64,000 nucleotides of DNA from Sulfitobacter sp. 20_GPM-1509m. GTDB taxonomy: Bacteria; Pseudomonadota; Alphaproteobacteria; Rhodobacterales; Rhodobacteraceae. Below the pieces are notes generated by a model that was given only the letters and a program-made list of their open reading frames with translations, searched no databases and had not been told where the DNA came from. Of the stretch, positions 23,466 to 64,000 are shown piece after piece; position 1 is the first letter of the stretch; every line of letters starts with the position of its first letter. The position numbers and the translations under genes were made by a program. The stretch is from the NCBI RefSeq assembly GCF_000620505.1, contig NZ_JIBC01000004.1:496001-560000 (forward strand), written 5' to 3'.

Positions 23466-23846
23466 GGCTACGCCTTACTGGAGATTCGTGACCTTGTGGC
23501 CGCGCTTTGGGTATCGGATTGGACGTGCGGTCCGCTCCCTGCTGCGGGCGTTGCGTGGCCAGCTTGCCAGCCCTATCACGACCGCGTGAGGCGGGCCAAG
23601 ACGTGGAGGCGCGGCAAATCTTAAGATGAGAAATTTAATTTCAATAAATCGTTTAAGTTGCATTTTTGACGCGCGGGATCAGGCTGTATTCCCGTCAGTC
23701 TGACCCGACAGATCCCTTGTTCAGATGCAGATTACGCACGTCTTTTCCTGCAAGAAAAGCCGCTAAATCCGCTTGTGGAAAGCCCTGTGTTCTGCGGGTC
23801 AGATGGGCAGAGATCTCACCGGATCAAAAACCACGACATCAACATC
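23466..23846. other. intergenic leader between MYG1 and the nrd operon
   Basis: This roughly 380-base stretch holds no supported gene. An A+T-rich part around 23625-23665 probably contains the MYG1 promoter on the minus strand. No convincing NrdR box was seen in the portion nearest the nrd operon. Confidence 0.5.
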
Positions 23847-53710: not shown

Positions 53711-55449
53711 TGCGCAGCAATCTGCGTTTGCGGTGTGACATCGCTGACCAGCGCGCGGTTCAACAGCGCCGCAATGGCGGCATCGTTTTCGGATGATCCG
53801 GCGGCCGGTGCGGCCAAAGGATCATGCGCGGTCAGCTTGTGGGCAATCACCGCATCCGCCAAACGCTTGCGGTCGCCGGAATACCCGGCATCACCCGAAA
53901 GCTTTGCATCTTCCCAAACCATGATCGCCGCAGAGGTGGCATTGTAAACCGCGCTGGCAGCGGCGCGCACCTCGCCTTCGCGCGCACGGTCATTGGCAAC
54001 GCCATCCAGCAGGTCGGCGGCGCGGTCAAAGCAGGACACCACCTGGTCAACCTCGGTGCCCGCCTCACGGGCGTCCTCCAAAAGCGTTCCGACATAGGCC
54101 CGCAAGGCATCCAACGCCCCGGCGCGACGCACCGCGCGCGCCACGTCAAGAGCCACGATGTTACTCGTGCCCTCCCAGATCGAGCCGAGATGGGCATCGC
54201 GCAGAACCCGCGCGTCCGACCATTCCTCGATATAGCCACAGCCGCCGCGCACCTCCATGCCGTCGCCCGCGACCTTGCGCGCGTCACGGCAGGTGCGGAA
54301 CTTTATCAACGGCGTCAGGATGCGCAGGACCTTGGCCATCTCGGCGTCGCCCGCATCTGCGGCCTGCAACACGCGTGCCGTATGAAAGACCATCGAACGC
54401 CCTTGCTCGGCGGTGACCAGCATTTTCATCAGCTGCCGACGCATCAGCGGCAGGTCGATCAACTGCTTCCCAAAGGCGGTCCGGTTCTGCGAGATGAACA
54501 AGGCTTCGGACACCGCGCGCCGCATCAACCCCGCTGAGCGCACGCCATTGGCCAAACGCGACATGTTGATCATGTCGGTCATTTGCTTGAACCCCTGCCC
54601 GGCATCGCCCACCAGATAGGCCGTGGCCCCTTCCAGGGCGATCTCTCCACTGGCCATGGACTTGGTGCCCATTTTGTCTTTCAGCCGCAAAATGCGGTAG
54701 GCGTTCCTGGTCCCGTTCGGCAAAATCCGCGGCAGCAGGAACAACGACAATCCGCCCGTGCCGGGGGCTGCACCTTCGGGCCGGGCAAGCACCATGCCAA
54801 GCGCGGCATCGGGGTTGGAGCAGAACCACTTGTCGCCGGACAGCTTCCAGTCGCCATCAACCAGCTTCGCCGTGGTTTCGATGGCCCCCACATCCGATCC
54901 GGCAAGCTGTTCGGTCATGAACATCGAGCCTTGGAAAACCTCGTCCATGTCCTGGCTGGTCAACTGGTCAAAATAGGTGTCGATCAGCTCTTTGGAGCCG
55001 AATTTGACCAATGTACGGGTCAGAGAATCCGTCATCGACAACGGACAGCACAGACCAAACTCAGCCTGCACGAACAAATAGACCAGCGCGTATTTCATCA
55101 TCGGCGGCAGCGTGGTTTCGGACCCGAACACCCCTGCACGATGCGACATCGCGGCAAGGCCGAATTCCCCAAACGCATAGCGTTCCAGTTCGACATAGGC
55201 AGGGTGTTTGTGCACTGCCTCCAGATCGGCACCATTGCGGGCGCGAATTTGCAGGGTTGGCGGGTTCTTGTCCGCCGTCAGCGCCAGCTTTTCCAACGCG
55301 CTGCCGACCAGGGCGCCCATGCGGTCCAGTTCAGCAAGGTAACGTGCGTCCTGACCCAGATACAGCCGGGTCAGGTCCTGCAGCGCAGTATCGGCCGCAA
55401 AGGCGTTCAAACCGGCGCTGTCGGGGATGTTCTTGTGAATGGTCGGCAT
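53707..55449 (-). CDS. acyl-CoA dehydrogenase (long, AidB/ACAD-like)
   Basis: The 580-residue FAD enzyme is longer than typical acyl-CoA dehydrogenases (about 380). Family features are FGLCCPLSMTDSLTRTLVKFG, MTEQLAGSDVGAIETTAKLV, KWFCSNPDAALGMVLARPEG, TAFGKQLIDLPLMRRQLMKML and GCGYIEEWSDARVLRDAHLGSIWEGTSNIVALDVARA. The extra length lies mainly in a 90-residue N-terminal segment and a helical C-terminus. It should desaturate the acyl-CoA made by the neighbouring CoA-transferase. The start at 55449 follows CGAGGAGACGACCAG on this strand. Confidence 0.88.
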   Translation of the reverse strand: MPTIHKNIPDSAGLNAFAADTALQDLTRLYLGQDARYLAELDRMGALVGSALEKLALTADKNPPTLQIRARNGADLEAVHKHPAYVELERYAFGEFGLAAMSHRAGVFGSETTLPPMMKYALVYLFVQAEFGLCCPLSMTDSLTRTLVKFGSKELIDTYFDQLTSQDMDEVFQGSMFMTEQLAGSDVGAIETTAKLVDGDWKLSGDKWFCSNPDAALGMVLARPEGAAPGTGGLSLFLLPRILPNGTRNAYRILRLKDKMGTKSMASGEIALEGATAYLVGDAGQGFKQMTDMINMSRLANGVRSAGLMRRAVSEALFISQNRTAFGKQLIDLPLMRRQLMKMLVTAEQGRSMVFHTARVLQAADAGDAEMAKVLRILTPLIKFRTCRDARKVAGDGMEVRGGCGYIEEWSDARVLRDAHLGSIWEGTSNIVALDVARAVRRAGALDALRAYVGTLLEDAREAGTEVDQVVSCFDRAADLLDGVANDRAREGEVRAAASAVYNATSAAIMVWEDAKLSGDAGYSGDRKRLADAVIAHKLTAHDPLAAPAAGSSENDAAIAALLNRALVSDVTPQTQIAAQ

Positions 55450-55532
55450 CTGGTCGTCTCCTCGGGTCGTCATAAGCAGACACGTTCCGGCCTGCGCATT
55501 TACCGCCGGACCTTGACCTGTAGGCAATTCCA

Positions 55533-55553
55533 ATACCAATATTAGTTTCGTAT
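55533..55553. promoter_or_regulatory. possible LysR-type operator, ATAC-N13-GTAT
   Basis: ATAC at 55533-55536 and GTAT at 55550-55553 are inverted in the divergent promoter region between the acyl-CoA dehydrogenase and LysR genes. Spacing is close to LysR-type T-N11-A sites. Confidence 0.35.
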
Positions 55554-55586
55554 TTCGCGATAGCAAAAAGCAAATGGATCAGCGCC

Positions 55587-56477
55587 ATGGCCATCACGTT
55601 CCGACAGCTCGAACAATTTCTTGTTCTCAGCAAAGAGCTGCACTTCGGGCGTGCGGCGACGCTGCTGAACATCTCGCAACCACCGCTCAGCACCAGCATG
55701 AAACAGCTCGAAGCAAACTTGGGCTTTGCGCTTCTGGATCGCGGGAAACGCGGTGTGCGGCTGACCCCGGCAGGGGTGATATTCGCCGATCATTGCGCCC
55801 GAATTCTGGGGCAACTTGATTCAGCGCGGGCTCTGGCGGAACAAAAGGCCAAAGGCGCGGCGGGGCGTATTTCGGTGTCTTTCGTCCCTTCAATGCTGTT
55901 TCGCAACCTGCCCAGATCGCTCCGGAATTTCGAAGATCTCTATCCCGCAGCGGAACTGTCCCTGCACGAAATGAACACGCAGCGCCAGGTTGACAGCCTG
56001 TTGCAGCGCAAGATGGATATCGGCTTCATTCACGCCGTACCGCTGCCGCCAGAGATCAAATCCCACCGCATCGAAACCGAGCGTTTGATGTGCTGTGTGC
56101 CGCGCCAGCATCGCCTCGCCGGTCGCAGCCGCATCGCGATATCAGAGATGGCCGGTGAAAAAGTGCTGGTCTTCGCGCGCGAATTCGCCCCCCATTATCA
56201 CGACCGCATCGTCGGCCTGCTGCGTGGGGCCGACGTGGAACCTTCTGCTCTTTTTGACGTGCAGCACTGGTTTACGGTGATTGCCCTTATCGCGCAGGGC
56301 ATGGGAATTTCGCTGGTGCCACAATCGCTGTCGCGGTCTTCCATGGCCGATGTCATCTATATCGAAGTGGACGACGCCAATGCCGAGCACGTGGTCGAAA
56401 TGATCTGGCATGGCGACAACCAGAGCAATCTGGCATCGACATTCCTGCGCTACATCCACCTTCACGGATTGTCGTGA
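55587..56477 (+). CDS. LysR-family transcriptional regulator
   Basis: The 296-residue protein has an N-terminal winged helix (ITFRQLEQFLVLSKELHFGRAATLLNISQPPLSTSMKQLEANLGFALLDR) and a LysR substrate-binding domain beginning at about residue 90 (RISVSFVPSMLFRNLPRSLRNFEDLYP). The second domain shows IALIAQGMGISLVPQSLSR. It is divergent from the CoA-transferase/acyl-CoA dehydrogenase/TAXI operon and probably activates it in response to the imported acid or its CoA ester. Confidence 0.92.
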   Translation: MAITFRQLEQFLVLSKELHFGRAATLLNISQPPLSTSMKQLEANLGFALLDRGKRGVRLTPAGVIFADHCARILGQLDSARALAEQKAKGAAGRISVSFVPSMLFRNLPRSLRNFEDLYPAAELSLHEMNTQRQVDSLLQRKMDIGFIHAVPLPPEIKSHRIETERLMCCVPRQHRLAGRSRIAISEMAGEKVLVFAREFAPHYHDRIVGLLRGADVEPSALFDVQHWFTVIALIAQGMGISLVPQSLSRSSMADVIYIEVDDANAEHVVEMIWHGDNQSNLASTFLRYIHLHGLS

Positions 56478-56624
56478 CAGATTTCAAAAGACCGCACGCC
56501 GCCAAAGTTCATCGCCCGGCGATATCGAAGGGATGTCCTGGGCTTTGATTTTCAGAGATTGGCTAAGATGTTTGCCCCGCAGGACAAATCACCACCTCTG
56601 CCAGACCTCTGAAAAAGCACCCGT

Positions 56625-58340
56625 CTACATTTGCTTTAAGGTGCTTGATGCCTCAAATTGCGACAAGAACACTTCACCAGTTAACTCGGCCAAAAAATGT
56701 GCCCGTTTCAAGCGGTCCATCACAGGACCTTTGACTTCGGACAGATGCAACTTCACGCCCATTTCATGCAGCCTCGCATTGATGGTTTCAAGAGATTCCA
56801 GAGCGCTGAGGTCGATGTCATTGATTGCTGAACACTGCAGGATGACGTGGCGGATGTTTTTGTCACCTGCCACCCGGTTGTGAATATTGTCTTCCAGATA
56901 GCGGGCATTGGCGAAATACAGACTCTCATCAACGCGCAGGGAAACGATGCTTGGATCGGTGATCACGTCATGTCGCAGTATATTGCGGTAGTGTTCTGTG
57001 CCCGGCACCTGCCCAACTTCAGCAATGTGCGGTTTTGATGACTTGTAGAGATGCAACAGGACTGACAAGCCGACACCAGCCGAAACGCCAGCTTCGACGC
57101 CTATCGCAAGGGTGATGATCATTGTCGCGAAAACGGCTGAGAAATCAGCTTTGGAATAGTCCCAACTCCGCTTCAGGATTGAAAAATCCACCAAGCTCAA
57201 AACTGCGACGATGATGGTTGCGGCCAAGGTGGCTTTGGGCAGGAAATAGATCAACGGGGTCAGGGCCAGGGCGGCGATCGCCAAACCGACAGCAGTGAAG
57301 GCCCCTGCGGCGGGGGTTTCGGCCCCGGCATCGAAATTGACGACAGATCGTGAAAATCCGCCAGTCACGGGGAAGCCGCCCGTCAGCGCGGCCCCGATAT
57401 TGGCGGCCCCCAGCCCGATCAACTCCTGGTCAGGATCGATGCGCTGGCGTTTCTTGGCGGCGAGGGTCTGGGCGACAGAAATTGATTCCACAAAACCGAT
57501 GATCGAGATCAGAAACGCAGGAAGCAGAAGCTGTCCAAGCAGTTCCGGCGAGAACGAAGGGAGTGTCAGCGGCGGCAGGCTTTGGGGCACTTCGCCAACG
57601 ATCTTGACGCCTTTGGCAGAAAGACCAAAGGCCCACACCGCAAAAGTCGTAGCGACCACAACAGCCACGGGACCGGTTTTCACGAGAACACCCGTGAGCC
57701 CATCCGAGAGACCAAACCGCTTGAGCAAAGGTCTCAATCCCTTACGCACCCAAAACAGGAATCCGGTCGCAAGGATGCCGATGATGGCTGTGATCCAGTT
57801 CGTCTCGGCAATATGCTCCGTGATGGAAATGACCAGCTCCAGCAGATTGTTGCCTTCGGCATCAATCCCGAGGACGTGCTTGAGTTGGCTGGCCGCGATG
57901 ATGATGCCTGACGCGGTGATAAAGCCCGCAATGACGGGGTGAGACAGAAAATTCGCGACAAAGCCAAGGCGGAACAGCCCCATGGCCAGCAGGATAACGC
58001 CTGAGAGTGCCGCAAGCGACAGGGCGGCAACGGCATACCCCATCGTGCCCTGTTCAACGATATTGCTCAGCGCCGCGGCGGTCATCAGGGAGACCACCGC
58101 AACGGGGCCAACCGCCAAAGCGCGGCTGGTGCCAAATACCGCATAGAGCATGATCGGCGCGATTGAGGCGTAAAGCCCCGCCTCGGGCGGCAGCCCCGCC
58201 AACAAGGCATAGGCCAGCGATTGTGGGATCAGCATGATTGTCACGATCAACGCGGCAACAACGTCGCTGGATAGGGCAGAACGGTTATAGGCCCGTCCCC
58301 ACGTCAGAATGGGCAAATAGCGCGTCATATCGGTTTTCAT
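56625..58340 (-). CDS. SulP family anion transporter with STAS domain
   Basis: The 571-residue protein has 10-12 membrane segments, starting YLPILTWGRAYNRSALSSDVVAALIVTIMLIPQSLAYALLAGLPPEAGLYAS, the SulP signature. It shows GFVESISVAQTLAAKKRQRIDPDQELIGLGAANIGAALTGGFPVTGGFSRSVVN and a C-terminal STAS domain (HVILQCSAINDIDLSALESLETINARLHEMGV). It moves sulfate, bicarbonate or similar anions. As last gene of the persulfide operon it may export sulfite or sulfate. The start at 58340 is preferred over one at 58373 because upstream sequence is polar and lacks similarity. Confidence 0.9.
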   Translation of the reverse strand: MKTDMTRYLPILTWGRAYNRSALSSDVVAALIVTIMLIPQSLAYALLAGLPPEAGLYASIAPIMLYAVFGTSRALAVGPVAVVSLMTAAALSNIVEQGTMGYAVAALSLAALSGVILLAMGLFRLGFVANFLSHPVIAGFITASGIIIAASQLKHVLGIDAEGNNLLELVISITEHIAETNWITAIIGILATGFLFWVRKGLRPLLKRFGLSDGLTGVLVKTGPVAVVVATTFAVWAFGLSAKGVKIVGEVPQSLPPLTLPSFSPELLGQLLLPAFLISIIGFVESISVAQTLAAKKRQRIDPDQELIGLGAANIGAALTGGFPVTGGFSRSVVNFDAGAETPAAGAFTAVGLAIAALALTPLIYFLPKATLAATIIVAVLSLVDFSILKRSWDYSKADFSAVFATMIITLAIGVEAGVSAGVGLSVLLHLYKSSKPHIAEVGQVPGTEHYRNILRHDVITDPSIVSLRVDESLYFANARYLEDNIHNRVAGDKNIRHVILQCSAINDIDLSALESLETINARLHEMGVKLHLSEVKGPVMDRLKRAHFLAELTGEVFLSQFEASSTLKQM

Positions 58341-58364
58341 TGTGTTCTCTGGGAATTTGAGTGA

Positions 58365-58387
58365 CCCCCGCAAAAGGTGTGCGGGGG
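58365..58387 (-). terminator. hairpin between the SQR-like and SulP genes
   Basis: CCCCCGC and GCGGGGG form a 7-base stem around a 9-base loop, 13 bases beyond the stop of the SQR-like gene. There is no T run, so it may attenuate rather than stop transcription into the SulP gene. Confidence 0.45.
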
Positions 58388-58400
58388 CTGTTATCGCTGT

Positions 58401-60074
58401 CTATTTGACCGTTACTTTTTCGGGCTTCGCCATCCATTCACGCCCCTTGAGCATGCCTTGCCAATAAATCGGGGGCAGCAGTTTTTCTTTGAGAAACCAT
58501 GCCGCGCGGGAGGGTTTGGTGCCGTCGATGATGGCTTTCGGGAAGCTGGGCAACATCGTTCCGCCATAGCCGAACTCTGCCAGAACGATCTTGCCGCGCT
58601 CGACCGTCAGCGGGCAGGAGCCGTAGCCGTTGTATTGTGCCACAGGCGATCCGCCGCGCATGTCGGCCACTATGTTTTCGGCGACAATGGGCGCCTGAAT
58701 GCGGGCGGCGGCCATCGTCTTGGCATTGGGCGCGTTCATCACGTCACCCAGGGACCACACATTGTCGTAGGTTTTGTGGCGCAAGGTGGCTTGATCCACG
58801 TCGACCCAACCTGCTGCATCCGCAAGCGGAGACACGCGAATGAAATCGGGGGCGGTCTGCGGCGGGCAGACGTGCATCATGTCGAATTCCATCTCGATCC
58901 GCTCGACCGGTGTGTCGGGTTTGGCGACGTCGAACCACGCCTTTTTGGCGTGACCATCCACAGCGACGAGATTGTGGAAAAAGTTGAGATGGGCGTCGTA
59001 TTTCCTGACGTAGTCCATCAGGGCGGGGACGTATTCCTTTACGCCAAAGAGCACGCCGCCTGCATTGTTGAACTGAATGTCGATATTCTTGAGGACGCCA
59101 CGCCGAAACCACGCATCACCCGACAGATACATCGCCTTTTGCGGCGCGCCGGCGCATTTGATCGGCATGGGGGGCTGGGTAAATATTGCACGGCCTTGTT
59201 TCATGCCCTCGACAAGCTTCCACGTGTAGGGCGCAAGGTCATAGCGGTAGTTCGATGTCACCCCGTTCTGGCCAAGCGTGTCGACAAGACCTTCGATCTT
59301 GTTCCAGTCCAGCTTGATCCCGGGACATACGACGAGACGCTTGTATTTCACCACCCGGCAGCCATCCAGGATCACTGCATTGTTCTGGGGCTCGAATGCC
59401 GCAACGGCCGACTTGATCCAATGTACACCTTTGGGGATCAACGAGCCCATTGTGCGCGACGTCTGCTCGGCTTCAAAAATGCCACCACCGACCATCGTCC
59501 AGCCGGGCTGGTAATAGTGGATGTCCGCGGGATCAATGATTGCGATTTCAAGTTCCGGTTTGCGGGCTTTCAGGCTTGCAGCTGCGGCAATACCACCAGC
59601 GCCAGCCCCCACGATCACGATCTCATAGCTCGCGTCGCCGGTATCGGTGGGGGTTTTGCCCCCGTTGACGATCCGCCGGACGACGCCTCCCATGTCATAC
59701 CCTGCGGCTTTGGTTGCGGCGAGGATGTCAGCAAGGCTACGCTGGTCGGCTTGTGCAAGCGACCACAGGGTTGCGGACCGGGTGCCCGTTCGGCAATAGG
59801 CCAGCACCGGACCGGGCAACTGGGCCAGCGCTTTGTCGAAGGCAACGGCATCTTCATCGGTGACCTTGCCTGACACGATTGGCAGATAGGCCGCCTCGAG
59901 CCCGGCTGTTTGCGCCGCTTTCGAGATTTCCTCGAATGTCGGCTGGTCAGCCCCTTCGCCGTCAGGGCGGTTGCAGATGATGGCGCGAAATCCTGCGTTC
60001 TTGATGGCTTGCATATCTTCGGGCAAGATCTGTTTGCTCACGGATAGCTCGGCAGTCAGTGATTTGATGTCCAT
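58401..60074 (-). CDS. fusion of DUF442 phosphatase/sulfurtransferase-like domain and sulfide:quinone oxidoreductase-like flavoprotein
   Basis: The 557-residue protein has two parts. Residues 1-110 match DUF442/TIGR01244 (SKQILPEDMQAIKNAGFRAIICNRPDGEG) and carry a Cys-x5-Arg loop (VLAYCRTGTRSATLW). From about 145 a flavoprotein follows with GAGAGGIAAAASLKARKPELEIAIIDPADIHYYQPGWTMVGGG, the conserved Cys of SQR in MPIKCAGAPQKAMYL and a C-terminal GYGSCPLTVERGKIVLAEFGYGGTMLPS. It probably oxidises sulfide to persulfide or polysulfide and passes electrons to quinone, while the N-terminal domain may carry persulfide. The DUF442-SQR order is known in the clade. Confidence 0.85.
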   Translation of the reverse strand: MDIKSLTAELSVSKQILPEDMQAIKNAGFRAIICNRPDGEGADQPTFEEISKAAQTAGLEAAYLPIVSGKVTDEDAVAFDKALAQLPGPVLAYCRTGTRSATLWSLAQADQRSLADILAATKAAGYDMGGVVRRIVNGGKTPTDTGDASYEIVIVGAGAGGIAAAASLKARKPELEIAIIDPADIHYYQPGWTMVGGGIFEAEQTSRTMGSLIPKGVHWIKSAVAAFEPQNNAVILDGCRVVKYKRLVVCPGIKLDWNKIEGLVDTLGQNGVTSNYRYDLAPYTWKLVEGMKQGRAIFTQPPMPIKCAGAPQKAMYLSGDAWFRRGVLKNIDIQFNNAGGVLFGVKEYVPALMDYVRKYDAHLNFFHNLVAVDGHAKKAWFDVAKPDTPVERIEMEFDMMHVCPPQTAPDFIRVSPLADAAGWVDVDQATLRHKTYDNVWSLGDVMNAPNAKTMAAARIQAPIVAENIVADMRGGSPVAQYNGYGSCPLTVERGKIVLAEFGYGGTMLPSFPKAIIDGTKPSRAAWFLKEKLLPPIYWQGMLKGREWMAKPEKVTVK

Positions 60075-60088
60075 GGTTCTCTCCGTGA

Positions 60089-60970
60089 TCAGATGGCGTT
60101 GATCGGCACTTTAAGCATCGGGTTGCCGTCCTGGTCGGTTGGGACCTCTCCGGCACGCATGTTGACCTGCAAAGACGGGATGATCAGTTTTGGCATGGCA
60201 AGCTGGGCGTCGCGTTCCGTGCGGAATTTGATGAAGTCTTCGCGTGTTTTGCTGCCACCGACGTGGATGTTGTTGGCTTTTTGCTCTGCCACTGTTGTTT
60301 CCCATTCAATCGCGCGTCCGTTGGGGCCGTAGTCGTGACACATGAACAGACGCATAGTGTCGGGCAGCGACAGAACCTTCTGGATGCTGTCATAAAGGAC
60401 GCCCGCGTCCCCGCCGGGGAAATCCGCGCGCGCAGAGCCGCCGTCTGGCATGAACAGCGTATCGCCCGCGAAGGCGGCGTTTCCTATAACGTGGACCATA
60501 CATGCGGGTGTGTGACCGGGCGTATACATCGCAAAGGCGTGCATGGTCCCGATCATGTAGGTGTCACCGTCTTTGAACAGCGCATCAAACTGCGATCCGT
60601 CGCGCTGGAACTCTGTGCCTTCGTTGAACACTTTGCCGAACGTCTCCTGGACGACCATGATTTTGTCGCCGACACCAATCTTTCCGCCCAGCTTTTGCTG
60701 AAGGTAGGGTGCCGCGCTCAGATGATCGGCATGGACATGTGTTTCAATGATCCAGTCAAGCGTCAGCCCGCGGTCCTGGATTTCTGCAATCAGGACGTCC
60801 GCCGCGTCATATGTGATCCGACCTGCGGCATAGTCGATGTCCATGACGCTATCGATGATGGCGCAATGATCGCTGTTTGGGTCTTTGACGATATAGGTGA
60901 TGGTGTTGGTGGCCTCGTCAAAATGGGCGGACACCTCAGGTTTGACGGACATATCGACAGGGTAGGTCAT
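60089..60970 (-). CDS. MBL-fold metallo-hydrolase, persulfide dioxygenase-like
   Basis: The 293-residue protein has the zinc or iron motif ETHVHADHLSAAPYLQQKLG (HxHxDH), YTPGHTPACMVHVIGNAAFAGDTLFMPDGGSARADFPGGDA and LFMCHDYGPNGRAIEWET. The start MSVKPEVSAHFDEATNTITYIVKD fits ETHE1-like persulfide dioxygenases and the related BLH proteins. It would oxidise glutathione or protein persulfide to sulfite. It is 18 bases from a YeeE/YedE half-transporter gene and 14 bases from the SQR-like gene, consistent with a sulfide-oxidising operon. Confidence 0.9.
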   Translation of the reverse strand: MTYPVDMSVKPEVSAHFDEATNTITYIVKDPNSDHCAIIDSVMDIDYAAGRITYDAADVLIAEIQDRGLTLDWIIETHVHADHLSAAPYLQQKLGGKIGVGDKIMVVQETFGKVFNEGTEFQRDGSQFDALFKDGDTYMIGTMHAFAMYTPGHTPACMVHVIGNAAFAGDTLFMPDGGSARADFPGGDAGVLYDSIQKVLSLPDTMRLFMCHDYGPNGRAIEWETTVAEQKANNIHVGGSKTREDFIKFRTERDAQLAMPKLIIPSLQVNMRAGEVPTDQDGNPMLKVPINAI

Positions 60971-60988
60971 CTGTTTTCCTCCAGTTGA

Positions 60989-61426
60989 TCAGGCTTGGGC
61001 TTGCGCCCGGTTGGTGAGTTTCGCCTGCAGCAGTTTGGCTGCGATGATCCCGCCGAGCAGTGCAGCGACAAAGACAAGAACGTCGGTTCGACCTGTGCCC
61101 AAAGCGGGCAGCGCACCACCTGGACAAAAACCGGCGATCCCCCAGCCGACACCAAAGACCGCAGACCCACCGATCAAGGGCAGATCCAGATCGCGGCGGG
61201 TCGGCAATTGAAAACGTGCCGACAGGAACGGGGCAGACCGCTTCAAGATGAAGCGATAGCCAATAAAGGTCACGACAAGGGCTCCGCCCATGACGAAGGC
61301 AAGGCTTGGATCCCAGGTGCCTGCAACATCGAAGAAGTTCAGAACTTTGGCAGGGTTGGCCATCCCCGAAATCGAAATCCCGACACCGAAGATGAGACCG
61401 ATCAGGTAGGAGGTCAGAACGCGCAT
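60989..61426 (-). CDS. YeeE/YedE (DUF6691-type) half-transporter
   Basis: The 145-residue membrane protein has about four hydrophobic segments: [76 protein letters not shown] and [17 protein letters not shown]. The [12 protein letters not shown] motif with its Cys is characteristic of YeeE/YedE proteins that move thiosulfate or sulfane sulfur. It pairs with the next half-protein, whose gene ends 3 bases away. Confidence 0.88.
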
Positions 61427-61429
61427 GGC

Positions 61430-61864
61430 TTATGCTCCCAATATGTGGCGGACCACAAAAACTGTGATGCCGGTTGTCAGCATGAAGGTGAGTGTTGCCG
61501 CGATAGAGCGTGGTGACAGCCGCGCCATTCCGCAGACCCCGTGACCCGAGGTGCATCCCGACCCGAAAGTGACGCCCACTCCAACGATAAAGCCACCGAC
61601 GACGAGCATTGTCGTCGAGACCGGCACCTGCACTGCTGGAAGTTGTCCCGTCATGAGAAGCACTGCAATTGGGCCGCTGATCATGCCGCCCAACACGGCG
61701 GCGCGCCACGACCAGTCAGAAAGGTTTGCGGGTTGCATCAGCCCGGCCAGAATGCCCGTCGCCCCCATGACACGACCCAGTGTTGCCATGAGCAGAACTG
61801 AGGCAAGACCGATCAAAGCCCCGCCACCAAGCGATTGAAACGGCGTAAAGACGGTCTCGATCAT
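61430..61864 (-). CDS. YeeE/YedE half-transporter, first gene of the pair
   Basis: The 144-residue membrane protein has [59 protein letters not shown] and the family motif [28 protein letters not shown] with two cysteines. It should form one half of a TsuA-like sulfur-transport channel with the neighbouring protein. Its start overlaps the DUF2892 gene stop by 4 bases, showing tight coupling. Confidence 0.88.
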
Positions 61865-62073
61865 ACTTTACAGGTCCGGATGCCGAATATGCGGTAAAGC
61901 GGACAGAACTTCATGGCCGACGTCCCGACCAGCACGAGGCCCGCGATGACGGAAATGATCGTTGCTGTGCTGGACGTAAACATCGTCAGACCGCTTACAA
62001 ACGGAGCGGCCAGCAGGATGATGCCAAGCAAAAGGCGGAAAACCCTGTCTGTTGTTCCAAGATTCGTTGTCAT
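61861..62073 (-). CDS. DUF2892 (YgaP C-terminal-like) small membrane protein
   Basis: The 70-residue protein has MTTNLGTTDRVFRLLLGIILLAA and [33 protein letters not shown], the DUF2892 pattern seen in the membrane part of the rhodanese YgaP. The CPLYRIFGIRTC segment brings two Cys together. It is the first gene of the sulfur operon, with GGAGGCAATGAA before the ATG and a quasi-palindromic operator 19 bases upstream. Confidence 0.85.
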   Translation of the reverse strand: MTTNLGTTDRVFRLLLGIILLAAPFVSGLTMFTSSTATIISVIAGLVLVGTSAMKFCPLYRIFGIRTCKV

Positions 62074-62091
62074 TTCATTGCCTCCTATAAA

Positions 62092-62110
62092 AGCTACATT
62101 CAATATAGCT
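62092..62110. promoter_or_regulatory. operator copy 1 in front of the sulfur operon
   Basis: AGCTACATTCAATATAGCT is a 19-base quasi-palindrome with 8 of 9 paired positions. It lies between the ribosome site of the DUF2892 gene and its upstream region. It agrees in 14 of 19 positions with the sequence at 63318-63336, so it is a strong candidate for a common regulator. Confidence 0.6.
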
Positions 62111-62159
62111 CTTATCGGCGCAGTTCTTGGTGACATTGTCACCAACCTGGGTCAGCCTG

Positions 62160-62831
62160 CTATGAATTATGATCTGCCAGTTTTTCCAGCCGCGCACGAT
62201 CCAGCAAGCTCACGCTGCCACGGGCCTGCTCGATCCAGCCGCGACGCTGGAATTCCTGAAGCTGGCGCGAGATCACTTCACGCGCCGTCCCAAGTTCCAC
62301 CGAGAGCTTTTGATGCGTTGTGATGATGGTATCCTGCCCATCCGACAGACTGAGCAATTTGTCGGCAAGCCGGACGTCCAGTCTCTGGAAGGCAACCTCG
62401 TCGATCATCAGGAACAGATCGGTGATACGCTTGGAAAATGCGGCAAACACGAAGTCTCGAAACGATTTCGACTGGCTAACGAGTTGATCGAACACCTCAC
62501 GCGGGATGGCAGCGGCCTGGATGGCGGTTTCCGAGATGCCTTCCGCCGAATAGTTCTCAAAGGCCAGAAGGCAGGCCGTTGTCAGAACGCAGCTTTCTCC
62601 GGCCTGAATCCGGTAAAGTACAATTTCGTGCCCGGTGTCAGACACCTGCTGGACCCTGACCGTTCCATCCAGAAGAAACAGCATGTTCTCGGGCGAGTTC
62701 CCGGGGCCAAAGATTGTAACCCCTTTTGGAACCTCAATGATGGCGCTCCGAGAGAGCAGGACCTGTTTGATTGTTGGCTCCAGACGAGACAGACCGGGAA
62801 AACGCTCCACCCATTTCTGCGCATCGGTCAT
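62160..62831 (-). CDS. Crp/Fnr-family transcriptional regulator with two cysteines
   Basis: The 223-residue protein has an effector domain (about 20-120, with TIFGPGNSPENMLFLLDGTVRVQQV) and a C-terminal helix-turn-helix (ITTHQKLSVELGTAREVISRQLQEFQRRGWI). Its only cysteines are C81 and C87 in GESCVLTTACLL. There is no N-terminal FNR-type Fe-S cluster motif. The pair could form a disulfide or a tetrasulfide and sense sulfane sulfur. It overlaps the Rrf2 gene by 4 bases and converges in direction with the sulfur operon on the same strand, probably controlling it. Confidence 0.88.
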   Translation of the reverse strand: MTDAQKWVERFPGLSRLEPTIKQVLLSRSAIIEVPKGVTIFGPGNSPENMLFLLDGTVRVQQVSDTGHEIVLYRIQAGESCVLTTACLLAFENYSAEGISETAIQAAAIPREVFDQLVSQSKSFRDFVFAAFSKRITDLFLMIDEVAFQRLDVRLADKLLSLSDGQDTIITTHQKLSVELGTAREVISRQLQEFQRRGWIEQARGSVSLLDRARLEKLADHNS

Positions 62832-63292
62832 CGTGAAGTGGTCTCCGTTCGTGGTATTTCCAGCGGAGCAATCCGTTCCATCAGTTGGCCACGGTTTGAC
62901 GCAATTTGCGCTATCGTAAGATCGTCCAGGACAGCCATGAAAGCTGCTGTAGCTTCCTGCATTTTCCGCGACAGGATACAGATCCCCATCAGCGGACAGG
63001 TGTTTTTCTCGGGGTTAAAGCACTCGACGACGTCAAGGGGACCTTCCGTAATCCTTACCACATCGCCGACGATGATGTCTTCGGGTGGGCGGGCAAGACG
63101 AAAGCCACCCCCGCGCCCTCGAACGGTCTCAAGGTAGCCAGCCCGGCCCAGTTCATGCACGATTTTCATGATGTGGGGGCGCGATAGGTTATGGATCTTG
63201 GCCACATCGTCTACGCGAACAAGATCAGGCGATTTGAGTGCTGCAAGCTGCAGGGATCGCAGGGCGTAGTTGGTATAACTGGTCAATTTCAT
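62828..63292 (-). CDS. Rrf2-family regulator, NsrR-like Fe-S sensor
   Basis: The 154-residue protein has an Rrf2 winged helix (MKLTSYTNYALRSLQLAALKSPDLVRVDDVAKIHNLSRPHIMKIVHELGRAGYLETVRGRGGGFRLARPPEDI) and the three-cysteine loop C91-x7-C99-x5-C105 in ECFNPEKNTCPLMGIC. This spacing matches NsrR, which carries an Fe-S cluster and senses nitric oxide. Operator copy 2 at 63318-63336 lies 26 bases upstream, so it probably represses its own gene and the sulfur operon. Confidence 0.9.
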   Translation of the reverse strand: MKLTSYTNYALRSLQLAALKSPDLVRVDDVAKIHNLSRPHIMKIVHELGRAGYLETVRGRGGGFRLARPPEDIIVGDVVRITEGPLDVVECFNPEKNTCPLMGICILSRKMQEATAAFMAVLDDLTIAQIASNRGQLMERIAPLEIPRTETTSR

Positions 63293-63317
63293 GGTGCATC
63301 CTGTTGTCGCACCTTAA

Positions 63318-63336
63318 AGATATATTGAAAGTATTG
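63318..63336. promoter_or_regulatory. operator copy 2 in front of the Rrf2-Crp genes
   Basis: AGATATATTGAAAGTATTG agrees in 14 of 19 positions with operator copy 1 read on the other strand. It lies 26 bases upstream of the Rrf2 start, fitting autorepression by an Rrf2-type dimer. Confidence 0.55.
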
Positions 63337-63376
63337 CTTTTGTAAATGACCTGGGCTACCCACGCCATTAAAACCA

Positions 63377-63391
63377 CTATTTTGAATATAG
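63377..63391. promoter_or_regulatory. operator copy 3 in front of the peroxiredoxin remnant and cydA
   Basis: CTATTTTGAATATAG is a 15-base quasi-palindrome with 6 of 7 paired positions and the same TTGAAT core as the other two copies. It sits 11 bases before the ATG of the truncated peroxiredoxin and could control transcription toward cydA. Confidence 0.5.
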
Positions 63392-63401
63392 GATAATCAT
63401 C

Positions 63402-63512
63402 ATGAGCTTCAGAATCGGGGACACGGCCCCAGACGTCTCGGCAGAGACAACGACTGGTCCCATCCAATTTCACGACTGGATTGGAACCGATTACATCCCG
63501 TGGCTCAAGTAG
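63402..63512 (+). pseudogene. truncated peroxiredoxin (1-Cys Prx-like), N-terminal remnant
   Basis: The frame MSFRIGDTAPDVSAETTTG PIQFHDWIG matches the first 30 residues of 1-Cys/Prx6-like peroxiredoxins. It then departs into TDYIPWLK and stops at a TAG at 63510-63512. The catalytic peroxidatic Cys region (usually FTPVCTTE) and the rest of the roughly 220-residue family are missing. The following bases read VDRDGEIIAPDFAPQRN in another frame and then stop, consistent with a large internal deletion. It is therefore a broken gene, or at most a 36-residue peptide. Confidence 0.75.
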
Positions 63513-63623
63513 ATCGTGATGGCGAGATCATCGCCCCCGATTTCGCTCCGCAGAGAAACTAACAGTTTTTAGCGGCGCTATGGATCAGTTTAGAGTGCCC
63601 GACAATCTAACGAGGAAGACACC

Positions 63624-64000
63624 ATGTTTGACGGTATGACCGCAGAGACACTCGCCCGAATGCAATTTGCATTCACAGTGTCGTTTCACATCATCTTTCC
63701 CGCTTTCTCGATTGGAGTGGCCAGCTTTCTGGCCGTTCTGAACGGTCTATGGCTGAAGACGCGGGACGATACCTATCTGACCTTGTTCAACTACTGGAAG
63801 AAAATCTTTGCAGTTGCCTTCGGCATGGGCGTCGTGTCGGGCATTGTGATGTCCTACCAGTTCGGCACCAACTGGTCGGTGTTTTCGGACAAAACCGGAC
63901 CGGTTCTTGGACCGCTTATGGCGTATGAAGTGCTATCGGCGTTTTTTCTCGAGGCCGGGTTTCTCGGGATCATGTTGTTCGGGCGCGAACGGGTCGGTGA
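63624..64000 (+). CDS. cydA: cytochrome bd ubiquinol oxidase subunit I (partial, N-terminal part)
   Basis: The frame starts at ATG 63624 after GAGGAAGACACC and stays open to the edge (125 residues). FDGMTAETLARMQFAFTVSFHIIFPAFSIGVASFLAVLNGLWL carries the first helix and a likely heme-ligand His. FGMGVVSGIVMSYQFGTNWSVF, PLMAYEVLSAFFLEAGFLGIMLFGRERVG matches CydA exactly, including the conserved Tyr-Glu and GRERVG loop. Cytochrome bd reduces oxygen with ubiquinol and resists sulfide, NO and cyanide. Its place beside sulfide-oxidising genes suggests protection of respiration in sulfide. Confidence 0.95.
   Translation, partial: MFDGMTAETLARMQFAFTVSFHIIFPAFSIGVASFLAVLNGLWLKTRDDTYLTLFNYWKKIFAVAFGMGVVSGIVMSYQFGTNWSVFSDKTGPVLGPLMAYEVLSAFFLEAGFLGIMLFGRERVG

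What the first reader, a model, noticed from the sequence alone, without database searches (positions are those of the whole stretch)
56625..64000. Reactive-sulfur island under a shared Rrf2-type operator, joined to cytochrome bd
Six minus-strand genes (SulP, DUF442-SQR fusion, persulfide dioxygenase-like MBL protein, two YeeE/YedE halves, DUF2892) lie beside Crp/Fnr and NsrR-like regulators, a peroxiredoxin remnant and cydA. The sequence shows three copies of one quasi-palindrome: 62092-62110, 63318-63336 and 63377-63391. Each lies just before one of the transcription units. The reading as one regulon that couples sulfide detoxification to a sulfide/NO-resistant oxidase is inference, but the operators agree closely and the genes fit.
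Basis: partly seen in the sequence, partly recalled or inferred. Interest (0 to 1): 0.78.

Follow-up and report, generated by a model that had tools for sequence, protein, structure and literature searches.

The report
Two-switch promoter for sulfide-detoxification genes

Summary
The three quasi-palindromes are real. A de novo search upstream of rrf2 in 65 loci gives GNTATATTTNAAATATANC. A matrix trained only on distant relatives ranks the rrf2 site and the prx/cyd site 1st and 2nd of all positions in the 64-kb window. The motif is conserved next to rrf2 and divergent cydAB, even in Colwellia-type loci that lack the sulfur genes. It has the 19-bp layout of NsrR sites, and the Rrf2 protein keeps three invariant Cys.

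The third site (62092-62110) is weaker (rank 5) and kept in a minority of relatives. The dominant element at the sulfur-operon promoter is a different palindrome, TTGGTGACATTGTCACCAA, 62127-62145. GTGACANTGTCAC (up to 2 mismatches) lies within 330 bp upstream of the sulfur operon in 50 of 56 operon loci, 11 of the 50 without rrf2 in the stretch. It goes with the Crp/Fnr gene, whose only two cysteines are nearly invariant. It sits 29 nt before a -10-like TA step (class II activator geometry); the Rrf2-type site lies over that -10.

Best reading: an NsrR-like repressor controls cydAB and itself; a Crp/Fnr-type thiol-pair activator drives sulfide detoxification; in this lineage Rrf2 is superimposed on the second promoter. 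Binding, signals and direction of regulation are inferred.

The parts
56625..58340 (-). SulP-type anion permease with STAS domain, last gene of the sulfur operon
   Evidence: Pfam Sulfate_transp + STAS, TIGR00815 over cut-off
58401..60074 (-). DUF442 (sulfur-transferase-like) - sulfide:quinone oxidoreductase fusion
   Evidence: PF04273 residues 2-109 + Pyr_redox_2; TIGR01244 over cut-off and an SQR model below its cut-off; full-length fusion in 44 loci
60089..60970 (-). metallo-beta-lactamase-fold persulfide dioxygenase-like protein
   Evidence: Lactamase_B; covers the dioxygenase half of Blh, NF040641 positions 138-423, E 8e-109, below the full-length cut-off
60989..61426 (-). YeeE/YedE second half (DUF6691)
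   Evidence: PF20398 E 4e-45
61430..61864 (-). YeeE/YedE first half
   Evidence: PF04143
61861..62073 (-). DUF2892 / YgaP-like membrane protein, first gene of the sulfur operon; start taken as the ATG at 62073
   Evidence: PF11127
62092..62110 (.). third, weak Rrf2-type quasi-palindrome, over the predicted -10 of the sulfur operon
   Evidence: 13.1-13.8 bits, rank 5 in window; conserved in a minority of relatives
62102..62107 (-). predicted -10 element TATATT
   Evidence: first T is 29 nt after the centre of 62127-62145; T 0.84 / A 0.86 at +29/+30 in 50 aligned loci
62127..62145 (.).
62160..62831 (-). Crp/Fnr-type regulator with the two-cysteine motif CVLTTAC (C81, C87)
   Evidence: cNMP_binding + HTH_Crp_2; Cys conservation
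62828..63292 (-). Rrf2-family regulator, NsrR/RirA-like; overlaps crp by 4 bp
   Evidence: PF02082, TIGR00738 over cut-off; best solved relative NsrR 5n07
63318..63336 (.). Rrf2 operator in front of rrf2-crp
   Evidence: 21.3-22.9 bits, rank 1 in window; same place in many relatives
63374..63392 (.). Rrf2 operator in front of prx remnant-cydAB (reader: 63377-63391)
   Evidence: 17.3-18.2 bits, rank 2 in window
63402..63512 (+). remnant of a 1-Cys peroxiredoxin gene (first 31 of 208 residues recognisable)
   Evidence: tblastn with the intact L004 protein; L004 protein is AhpC-TSA + 1-cysPrx_C
63624..64000 (+). cydA (continues past the window; cydB follows in L002)
   Evidence: Cyt_bd_oxida_I; L002 ORFs

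Best explanation
Two regulatory modules meet here. Module 1: the Rrf2 protein, an NsrR-like repressor that probably carries an Fe-S cluster, binds GNTATAT-N5-ATATANC sites between rrf2 and the divergent prx/cydAB genes, repressing its own operon (rrf2-crp) and cytochrome bd until a signal (NO, or reactive sulfur acting on the cluster) removes it. Module 2: the Crp/Fnr-type protein binds a 13-bp core, GTGACNNNGTCAC, centred near -41 of the sulfur-operon promoter, and activates it as a class II activator. It probably does so when its C81/C87 thiol pair reacts with persulfide or polysulfide. In this lineage a weak Rrf2 site over the -10 of the sulfur promoter adds a second lock, and rrf2 and crp overlap as one operon. 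Shown here by sequence comparison: motif conservation, positions, linkage of each motif to its regulator gene, the -10 spacing, Cys conservation. Inferred: which protein binds which site, activation versus repression, the cluster, the signals.
For: Motif 1: de novo palindrome from 65 rrf2 upstream regions. Of 97 hits >=13 bits in 1.02 Mb of 65 loci, 80 lie within 270 bp before rrf2 (in 53 of 65 loci), 8 upstream of a sulfur gene, 1 upstream of cyd/prx outside that interval, and 8 elsewhere. Held-out test: 27 of 30 near loci have a >=12-bit site within 260 bp, against 13 hits in 489 kb elsewhere in those loci. It is present where there is no crp or sulfur gene in the locus (e.g. L038, L039, L042, L049, L054-L057), so it goes with Rrf2. 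Motif 2: in 38 of 40 loci where crp is detected and 3 of 28 where it is not; two of those three genomes carry crp elsewhere. 50 of 56 loci with the sulfur operon have it within 330 bp upstream; 11 of the 50 have no rrf2 in the stretch held. The core is exact only twice in the 4.74-Mb genome, the other copy inside an ORF. -10 distance. Crp: C81 in 55 of 55, C87 in 53 of 55. Its helix TAREVISR has R-E-x-x-x-R; Rodionov 2005 links R180 and E181 of CRP to G3 and A6 of the half-site (that these residues are the same is my reading by eye). Third site: higher scores with rrf2 present, Mann-Whitney p 0.0008, relatedness ignored.
Against: No binding or expression data. GTGA-N5-TCAC is one base shorter than the CRP spacing in print (N6), so binding by a Crp/Fnr protein is not a given. 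The Cys pair is not specific to the sulfur role: crp homologues without a sulfur operon beside them are among the 55 aligned, and the distant 3dv8 has C-x5-C too. L122 has crp (45%) and the operon but no motif. L053 has the motif but no crp found in its genome at E <= 1e-20. 12 of 65 loci have no >=13-bit motif-1 site before rrf2: L007, L011, L017, L020, L025, L028, L030, L032, L052, L063, L064, L066. An unrelated window position, 23632, scores 17.1 bits, and the loose IUPAC form is not enriched genome-wide.
Confidence: 0.65

Rival explanations
1. One regulon under the Rrf2 operator alone; the Crp/Fnr protein and the GTGAC palindrome are secondary.
For: Three Rrf2-type sites, one before each unit; Rrf2-type scores over the sulfur -10 are higher where rrf2 is present.
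Against: The Rrf2-type site at the sulfur promoter reaches 13 bits in only 7 of 39 rrf2-bearing loci and 0 of 11 others, while GTGACANTGTCAC (<=2 mismatches) is at 50 of 56 sulfur operons. The sulfur operon occurs with crp and the palindrome but no rrf2 in the fetched stretch in several genomes.
Confidence: 0.15
2. GTGACNNNGTCAC is read by some other factor, or is an RNA hairpin (attenuator or crp terminator), not by the Crp/Fnr protein.
For: The odd 13-bp core is one base shorter than the CRP-type spacing. By eye the palindrome could form an 8-bp stem with a 3-nt loop just after crp (not folded here). L053 has it without a crp found.
Against: It tracks crp presence across loci. In a Ruegeria-type group (11 loci) it also stands 58-60 bp before rrf2, away from the crp end. 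The distance to the -10-like TA is constant. No Rfam family at gathering threshold in 54000-64000.
Confidence: 0.17
3. The Rrf2 protein is a plain NO sensor (NsrR), cydAB is its NO-tolerant oxidase, and the sulfur genes are neighbours without a shared signal.
For: 19-bp NsrR layout, three invariant Cys, best solved relative NsrR; rrf2-cydAB occurs without sulfur genes in the locus; the modules are separable (7 of 16 rrf2-bearing genomes in the family sample lack a >=50% crp).
Against: NsrR equivalog cut-off not met (109 against 182 bits). No copper nitrite reductase found in this genome (NirS and other NO sources not tested). rrf2 and crp overlap by 4 bp, and a Rrf2-type site sits on the sulfur promoter.
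Confidence: 0.3

Closest known systems
BigR / SqrR (ArsR-type) sulfide regulons, e.g. bigR operon of Xylella and Agrobacterium and yeeE-yedE-pdo2 of Acinetobacter (PMC5823870 and PMC7315123, passages; SqrR from PMC9774590, passages)
   Same: Same kinds of genes: YeeE/YedE pair, MBL persulfide dioxygenase, DUF442 domain; a two-Cys thiol switch in the regulator; BigR recognises the -10 region of its operon.
   Different: Regulators here are Rrf2 and Crp/Fnr, not ArsR; the predicted main control is activation from about -41; DUF442 is fused to SQR instead of the dioxygenase; cydAB is joined. This genome has a separate yeeE-pdo set behind an ArsR-like ORF at C5 (ArsR named by eye).
NsrR (Rrf2 family, NO-responsive repressor)
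   Same: 19-bp palindrome with N5 centre (gATGyAT-N5-ATrCATc in PMC1274295, passages), three-Cys region, best solved relative 5n07.
   Different: Position 4 of the half-site is A instead of G; the targets are cydAB/prx, not hmp/hcp; equivalog score not reached.
FisR and CstR sulfide regulators; persulfidated Crp-like protein of Acinetobacter baumannii
   Same: FisR controls an SQR/PDO operon under sulfide; an A. baumannii Crp-like protein is a persulfidation target, with control of its activity only suggested (PMC7315123, abstract and passages). CstR: figure legend in PMC9774590.
   Different: FisR and CstR are other protein families (recalled). The A. baumannii Crp-like protein was not compared here and is not described in the passages seen as the regulator of the sulfur operon.
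HcpR / CRP (Crp/Fnr family)
   Same: Crp/Fnr fold and R-E-x-x-x-R recognition helix; GTGA-type half-site as in CRP-like HcpR.
   Different: Core spacing GTGA-N5-TCAC against N6 (wTGTGAnnnnnnTCACAw) and GTAAC-N4-GTTAC; a Cys pair lies in the effector domain; targets are sulfide detoxification genes.

Membership tests
NsrR (NO-sensing Rrf2 repressor) | NCBIfam equivalog NF008240 score | tested here: not met
   109 bits against cut-off 182; RirA NF008886 also not met, 126 against 193
NsrR (NO-sensing Rrf2 repressor) | Rrf2 superfamily domain | tested here: met
   TIGR00738 111 bits against 73.3; PF02082 121 against 30
NsrR (NO-sensing Rrf2 repressor) | three conserved cluster cysteines | tested here: met
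   C91, C99, C105 in 70 of 70 aligned homologues; that they bind a cluster is recalled for the family
NsrR (NO-sensing Rrf2 repressor) | gATGyAT-N5-ATrCATc operator | tested here: inconclusive
   same 19-bp N5 layout, but half-site GNTATAT with A at position 4
NsrR (NO-sensing Rrf2 repressor) | response to NO | not testable with these tools
   needs biochemistry
Crp/Fnr family | cNMP-binding-like domain plus Crp-type HTH | tested here: met
   PF00027 43.5 bits, PF13545 52 bits
Crp/Fnr family | even-spaced dyad (GTGA-N6-TCAC or TTGAT-N4-ATCAA) | tested here: not met
   GTGA-N5-TCAC occurs 50 times and N6 once in 50 regions; the regions were chosen with an N5-core pattern, so this shows the spacing of that palindrome, not that an N6 box is rare; lowers the claim that this site is an ordinary Crp/Fnr box
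Crp/Fnr family | class II site position near -41 | tested here: inconclusive
   -10-like TA at +29/+30 from the centre in 50 aligned loci; start site not mapped
HcpR | HcpR-type operator | tested here: not met
   operator spacing differs from the published consensus forms seen
HcpR | control of hcp | not tested
   hcp was not sought in this genome
BigR/SqrR-type sulfide regulon | ArsR-type regulator | tested here: not met
   the genes of 56625-64000 given to Pfam include no ArsR protein
BigR/SqrR-type sulfide regulon | YeeE/YedE + persulfide dioxygenase + DUF442 gene set | tested here: met
persulfide dioxygenase / Blh | bifunctional DUF442-dioxygenase fusion (NF040641) | tested here: not met
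   dioxygenase half alone 364 against cut-off 625; DUF442 sits on SQR

The most novel reading that the evidence does not exclude
The Crp/Fnr protein is a persulfide- or polysulfide-switched transcription activator: its only two cysteines, C81 and C87, lie in the cNMP-type effector domain and take the place of a small-molecule ligand. It reads a non-canonical odd-spaced box (GTGA-N5-TCAC). It is the main regulator of sulfide detoxification in many Rhodobacterales, while an NsrR-like Rrf2 protein couples the same promoter to cytochrome bd by covering the -10.
Probability: 0.37. Interest if true: 0.75.

Novelty: new variant of a known kind. Interest (0 to 1): 0.57.

Why it matters
In the passages read here, dedicated control of SQR/dioxygenase operons rests on BigR/SqrR (ArsR), CstR and FisR; listing titles also name OxyR, MarR, PerR and AdpA as sulfane-sulfur sensors. 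A Crp/Fnr activator with a thiol pair, plus an NsrR-like repressor on the same promoter, would be a different logic. It would give a testable link between sulfide detoxification and a sulfide- and NO-tolerant oxidase (tolerance known from reference titles in PMC9774590) in marine bacteria. The odd spacing of the box also asks a structural question about how Crp/Fnr dimers sit on DNA.

Tried and rejected
Genome-wide count of motif 1 with an IUPAC pattern: 65 matches at <=3 mismatches against 99 for the reversed control, so the loose pattern is uninformative. Of the sites listed at 2 mismatches besides the window's, C6:288158 (14.1 bits) overlaps the start of a LysR-like ORF (named by eye) with no sulfur link seen, and C1:137760 scores 7.8 bits. 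Only 15 of the 65 sites became loci and were scored.

HcpR2 box as a precedent for the odd spacing: I recalled it as GTAAC-N3-GTTAC; the paper gives N4, so that precedent was dropped.

GTGACAWTGTCAC as a genome-level marker of crp: found in 37 of 246 family genomes against 3 for the reversed control. I fetched 20 of the 42 matched places, mostly in genomes without a close crp at the place. 19 of these 20 lie inside ORFs of 227 aa or more; the other (L105) follows a crp paralogue. Ten further places lie within 70 bp of the crp or rrf2 matches; the remaining 12 were not looked at. The genome-level count was therefore not used as evidence.

NO-related genes in the own genome: nirK not found, with a control that rang; NnrS unanswerable because the control did not ring. 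Structure prediction was not run, since coordinates are not returned and the question is binding.

Literature: the listings show no paper on a Crp/Fnr regulator of this operon. Subscription journals are mostly missing from the library, so it may be in print elsewhere. Passages of PMC545781, PMC4344238 and PMC5398030 were also read; the Rrf2 protein MppG and CrpK of Rhodobacter sphaeroides named in PMC4344238 were not compared with the proteins here.
Full report
What is there. The window end holds a minus-strand island, DUF2892 - yeeE - DUF6691 - MBL dioxygenase - DUF442/SQR fusion - SulP, preceded by crp and rrf2 on the same strand. The divergent plus strand carries a peroxiredoxin remnant and cydAB. 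rrf2 and crp overlap by 4 bp, so they are probably co-transcribed. Between crp and DUF2892 there are 86 bp, which hold two palindromes. Between rrf2 and the prx remnant there are 109 bp, which hold two more.

I fetched 67 relatives of the Rrf2 gene with flanks and ran a palindromic zero-or-one-site search on 260 bp upstream of rrf2 in 65 loci (the window's locus and L003-L066; L067-L069 were left out as distant). The best motif is GNTATATTTNAAATATANC. Sites recur about 36 and 91 bp before rrf2 in many loci; the distal one lies before prx or cydA. At 13 bits there are 97 hits in 1.02 Mb, 85 of them outside the ORFs that I called. 80 of the 97 lie within 270 bp before rrf2, 8 upstream of a sulfur gene, 1 upstream of cyd/prx, 8 elsewhere; 53 of 65 loci have at least one before rrf2 and 12 have none. 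To avoid circularity I trained a second matrix on the 34 loci with Rrf2 below 80% identity. It ranks the window's rrf2 site first (21.3) and its prx/cyd site second (17.3). Of 30 held-out near loci, 27 have a site of at least 12 bits within 260 bp; elsewhere in those loci there are 13 hits in 489 kb, not all of which need be false. A loose pattern is not enriched in the whole genome.

Who reads it. rrf2 is divergent from cydA within 1.6 kb in 47 of 64 relatives; 15 have none and 2 are cut short. This holds in the Colwellia (L039, L042), Glaciecola (L049) and Leucothrix (L038) loci, where crp and the sulfur operon are absent and the motif is present. The motif thus goes with Rrf2 and cyd. The layout equals the NsrR site gATGyAT-N5-ATrCATc (PMC1274295, passages) except for the fourth base. 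The protein keeps C91, C99 and C105 in 70 of 70 homologues, and its best solved relative is NsrR 5n07. The NsrR and RirA equivalog cut-offs are not met. I therefore call it NsrR-like, not NsrR.

The missed palindrome. TTGGTGACATTGTCACCAA at 62127-62145 is the only match with up to 3 mismatches in the window, mean 0.04 in shuffles. Its core is exact at two places in the 4.74-Mb genome, and the other is inside an ORF. Among 68 loci (the window's and L003-L069), GTGACANTGTCAC is present (<=2 mismatches outside ORFs, <=1 anywhere) in 38 of 40 loci with crp and 3 of 28 without. The two crp loci without it are L005, which has no sulfur operon in the stretch, and L015, with a partial crp. Of the three crp-less loci with it, L012 and L045 have crp elsewhere in the genome, and L053, from a metagenome-assembled genome, has none found. 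In 11 loci of a Ruegeria-type group a copy stands 58-60 bp before rrf2.

Independence from Rrf2. In a sample of 246 family genomes, crp homologues at E <= 1e-30 are in 121, 70 of them at 50% identity or more by my count of the listing, while rrf2 at E <= 1e-45 is in 16; nine of those 16 have a crp of at least 50%. I looked at 21 crp neighbourhoods (L105, L107-L126). In 15 of 21 the palindrome (<=2 mismatches) follows crp within 260 bp; what follows in L108 was not identified. In five of the other six (L107, L109, L117, L118, L121) no sulfur operon follows directly. L122 has the operon without the motif and is a counter-example. Over all loci with a sulfur operon, 50 of 56 have the palindrome within 330 bp upstream (47 of 50 with crp in the locus, 3 of 6 without). 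The six misses are L030, L046, L048, L058, L060 and L122; in L030 and L048 one search found it outside that interval. The centre lies 62-67 bp before the first operon gene detected in 28 of the 50; in the others it is 69-294 bp, partly because a first gene was not detected by tblastn.

Promoter geometry. Aligning the 50 loci on the palindrome centre, T (0.84) and A (0.86) stand at +29 and +30, the distance expected between a class II site near -41 and the start of a -10 (the class II distance is recalled from E. coli CRP promoters; the last -10 base is not conserved in the alignment). In the window this is TATATT at 62107-62102. With the matrix from rrf2 upstream regions, scores at this place average 4.4 bits in 39 loci with rrf2 and -4.5 in 11 without (Mann-Whitney p 0.0008, relatedness ignored). 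At least 8 bits: 13 of 39 against 0 of 11. At least 13 bits: 7 of 39 against 0 of 11, Fisher p 0.15. So the third site is probably real but optional, not a fixed part.

The Crp/Fnr protein. It has two cysteines only, in CVLTTAC; C81 is conserved in 55 of 55 and C87 in 53 of 55 aligned homologues. The nearest solved relative, 3dv8, has C-x5-C at the same place. As crp homologues without a sulfur operon beside them keep the pair too, it is older than the sulfur link. The recognition helix has R-E-x-x-x-R; Rodionov and co-workers link R180 and E181 of CRP to G3 and A6 of the half-site, so GTGA is the expected half-site. The N5 spacing is not expected, CRP-like boxes having N6. This is the main weakness of assigning the palindrome to this protein.

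Mechanism. Most likely Crp is a class II activator of the sulfur operon that responds to persulfide or polysulfide through its thiol pair. Rrf2 represses rrf2-crp and prx/cydAB and, in part of the lineage, the sulfur operon by covering its -10, as BigR does at its own operon (PMC5823870, passages). Sulfide raises hmp-nsrR transcripts in Acinetobacter, and a Crp-like protein there is persulfidated (PMC7315123, passages), so both families can be touched by sulfide. The signals, the direction of regulation and the binding partners are inference.

Same genome, other sulfur sets. Two further DUF6691 genes lie at C5:1989 and C1:97536. The C5 set has an ArsR-like ORF upstream. In the 3.4-kb stretches held, neither shows the GTGAC palindrome at <=1 mismatch (one at 2 mismatches in L133, at 2982) nor an Rrf2 site above 4 bits. 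The two palindromes are thus not general marks of such gene sets.

Verdict. The gene set is known; the regulation was not met in the listings of the searches made, with the limits of that library.

Noticed in passing
58401-60074 and 60089-60970: Domain exchange against Blh: here the DUF442 domain is fused to SQR and the dioxygenase stands alone. In L111, L113, L115 and L125 only a DUF442-like stretch is found between MBL and SulP.
   Followed up: partly
63402-63512: Peroxiredoxin remnant: a peroxiredoxin gene (1-Cys type in L004) starts within 200 bp of rrf2 in 17 of 64 relatives, with an Rrf2 site between in many; an EF-hand protein gene stands next to it in some.
   Followed up: partly
G000:C5:1-3400 (L133) and G000:C1:97500 (L134): Two more YeeE/DUF6691 - MBL dioxygenase sets in the same genome, one behind an ArsR-like ORF, one with a separate DUF442-like ORF (named by eye).
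   Followed up: partly
L038, L039, L042, L045, L046, L049: Rrf2 genes about 70-77% identical in gammaproteobacterial records, 4 of these 6 with divergent cydAB, which suggests transfer between classes.
   Followed up: no
L004 and L015 (same record, Roseobacter sp. GAI101): Two rrf2-cydAB loci in one genome, one with and one without the sulfur operon.
   Followed up: no
L002:12047-12157: A small 36-residue ORF directly after cydB, perhaps a CydX-like subunit (guess, not searched).
   Followed up: no
L105 (G072:C58): A Crp paralogue of only 37% identity is followed by an exact copy of the palindrome core and a DUF2892-like reading frame (by eye), so the box may be older than this crp subfamily.
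   Followed up: partly
23632-23650: An intergenic position elsewhere in the window scores 17.1 bits with the Rrf2 matrix, nearly as high as the prx/cyd site; no link to cyd or sulfur genes was seen around it.
   Followed up: partly
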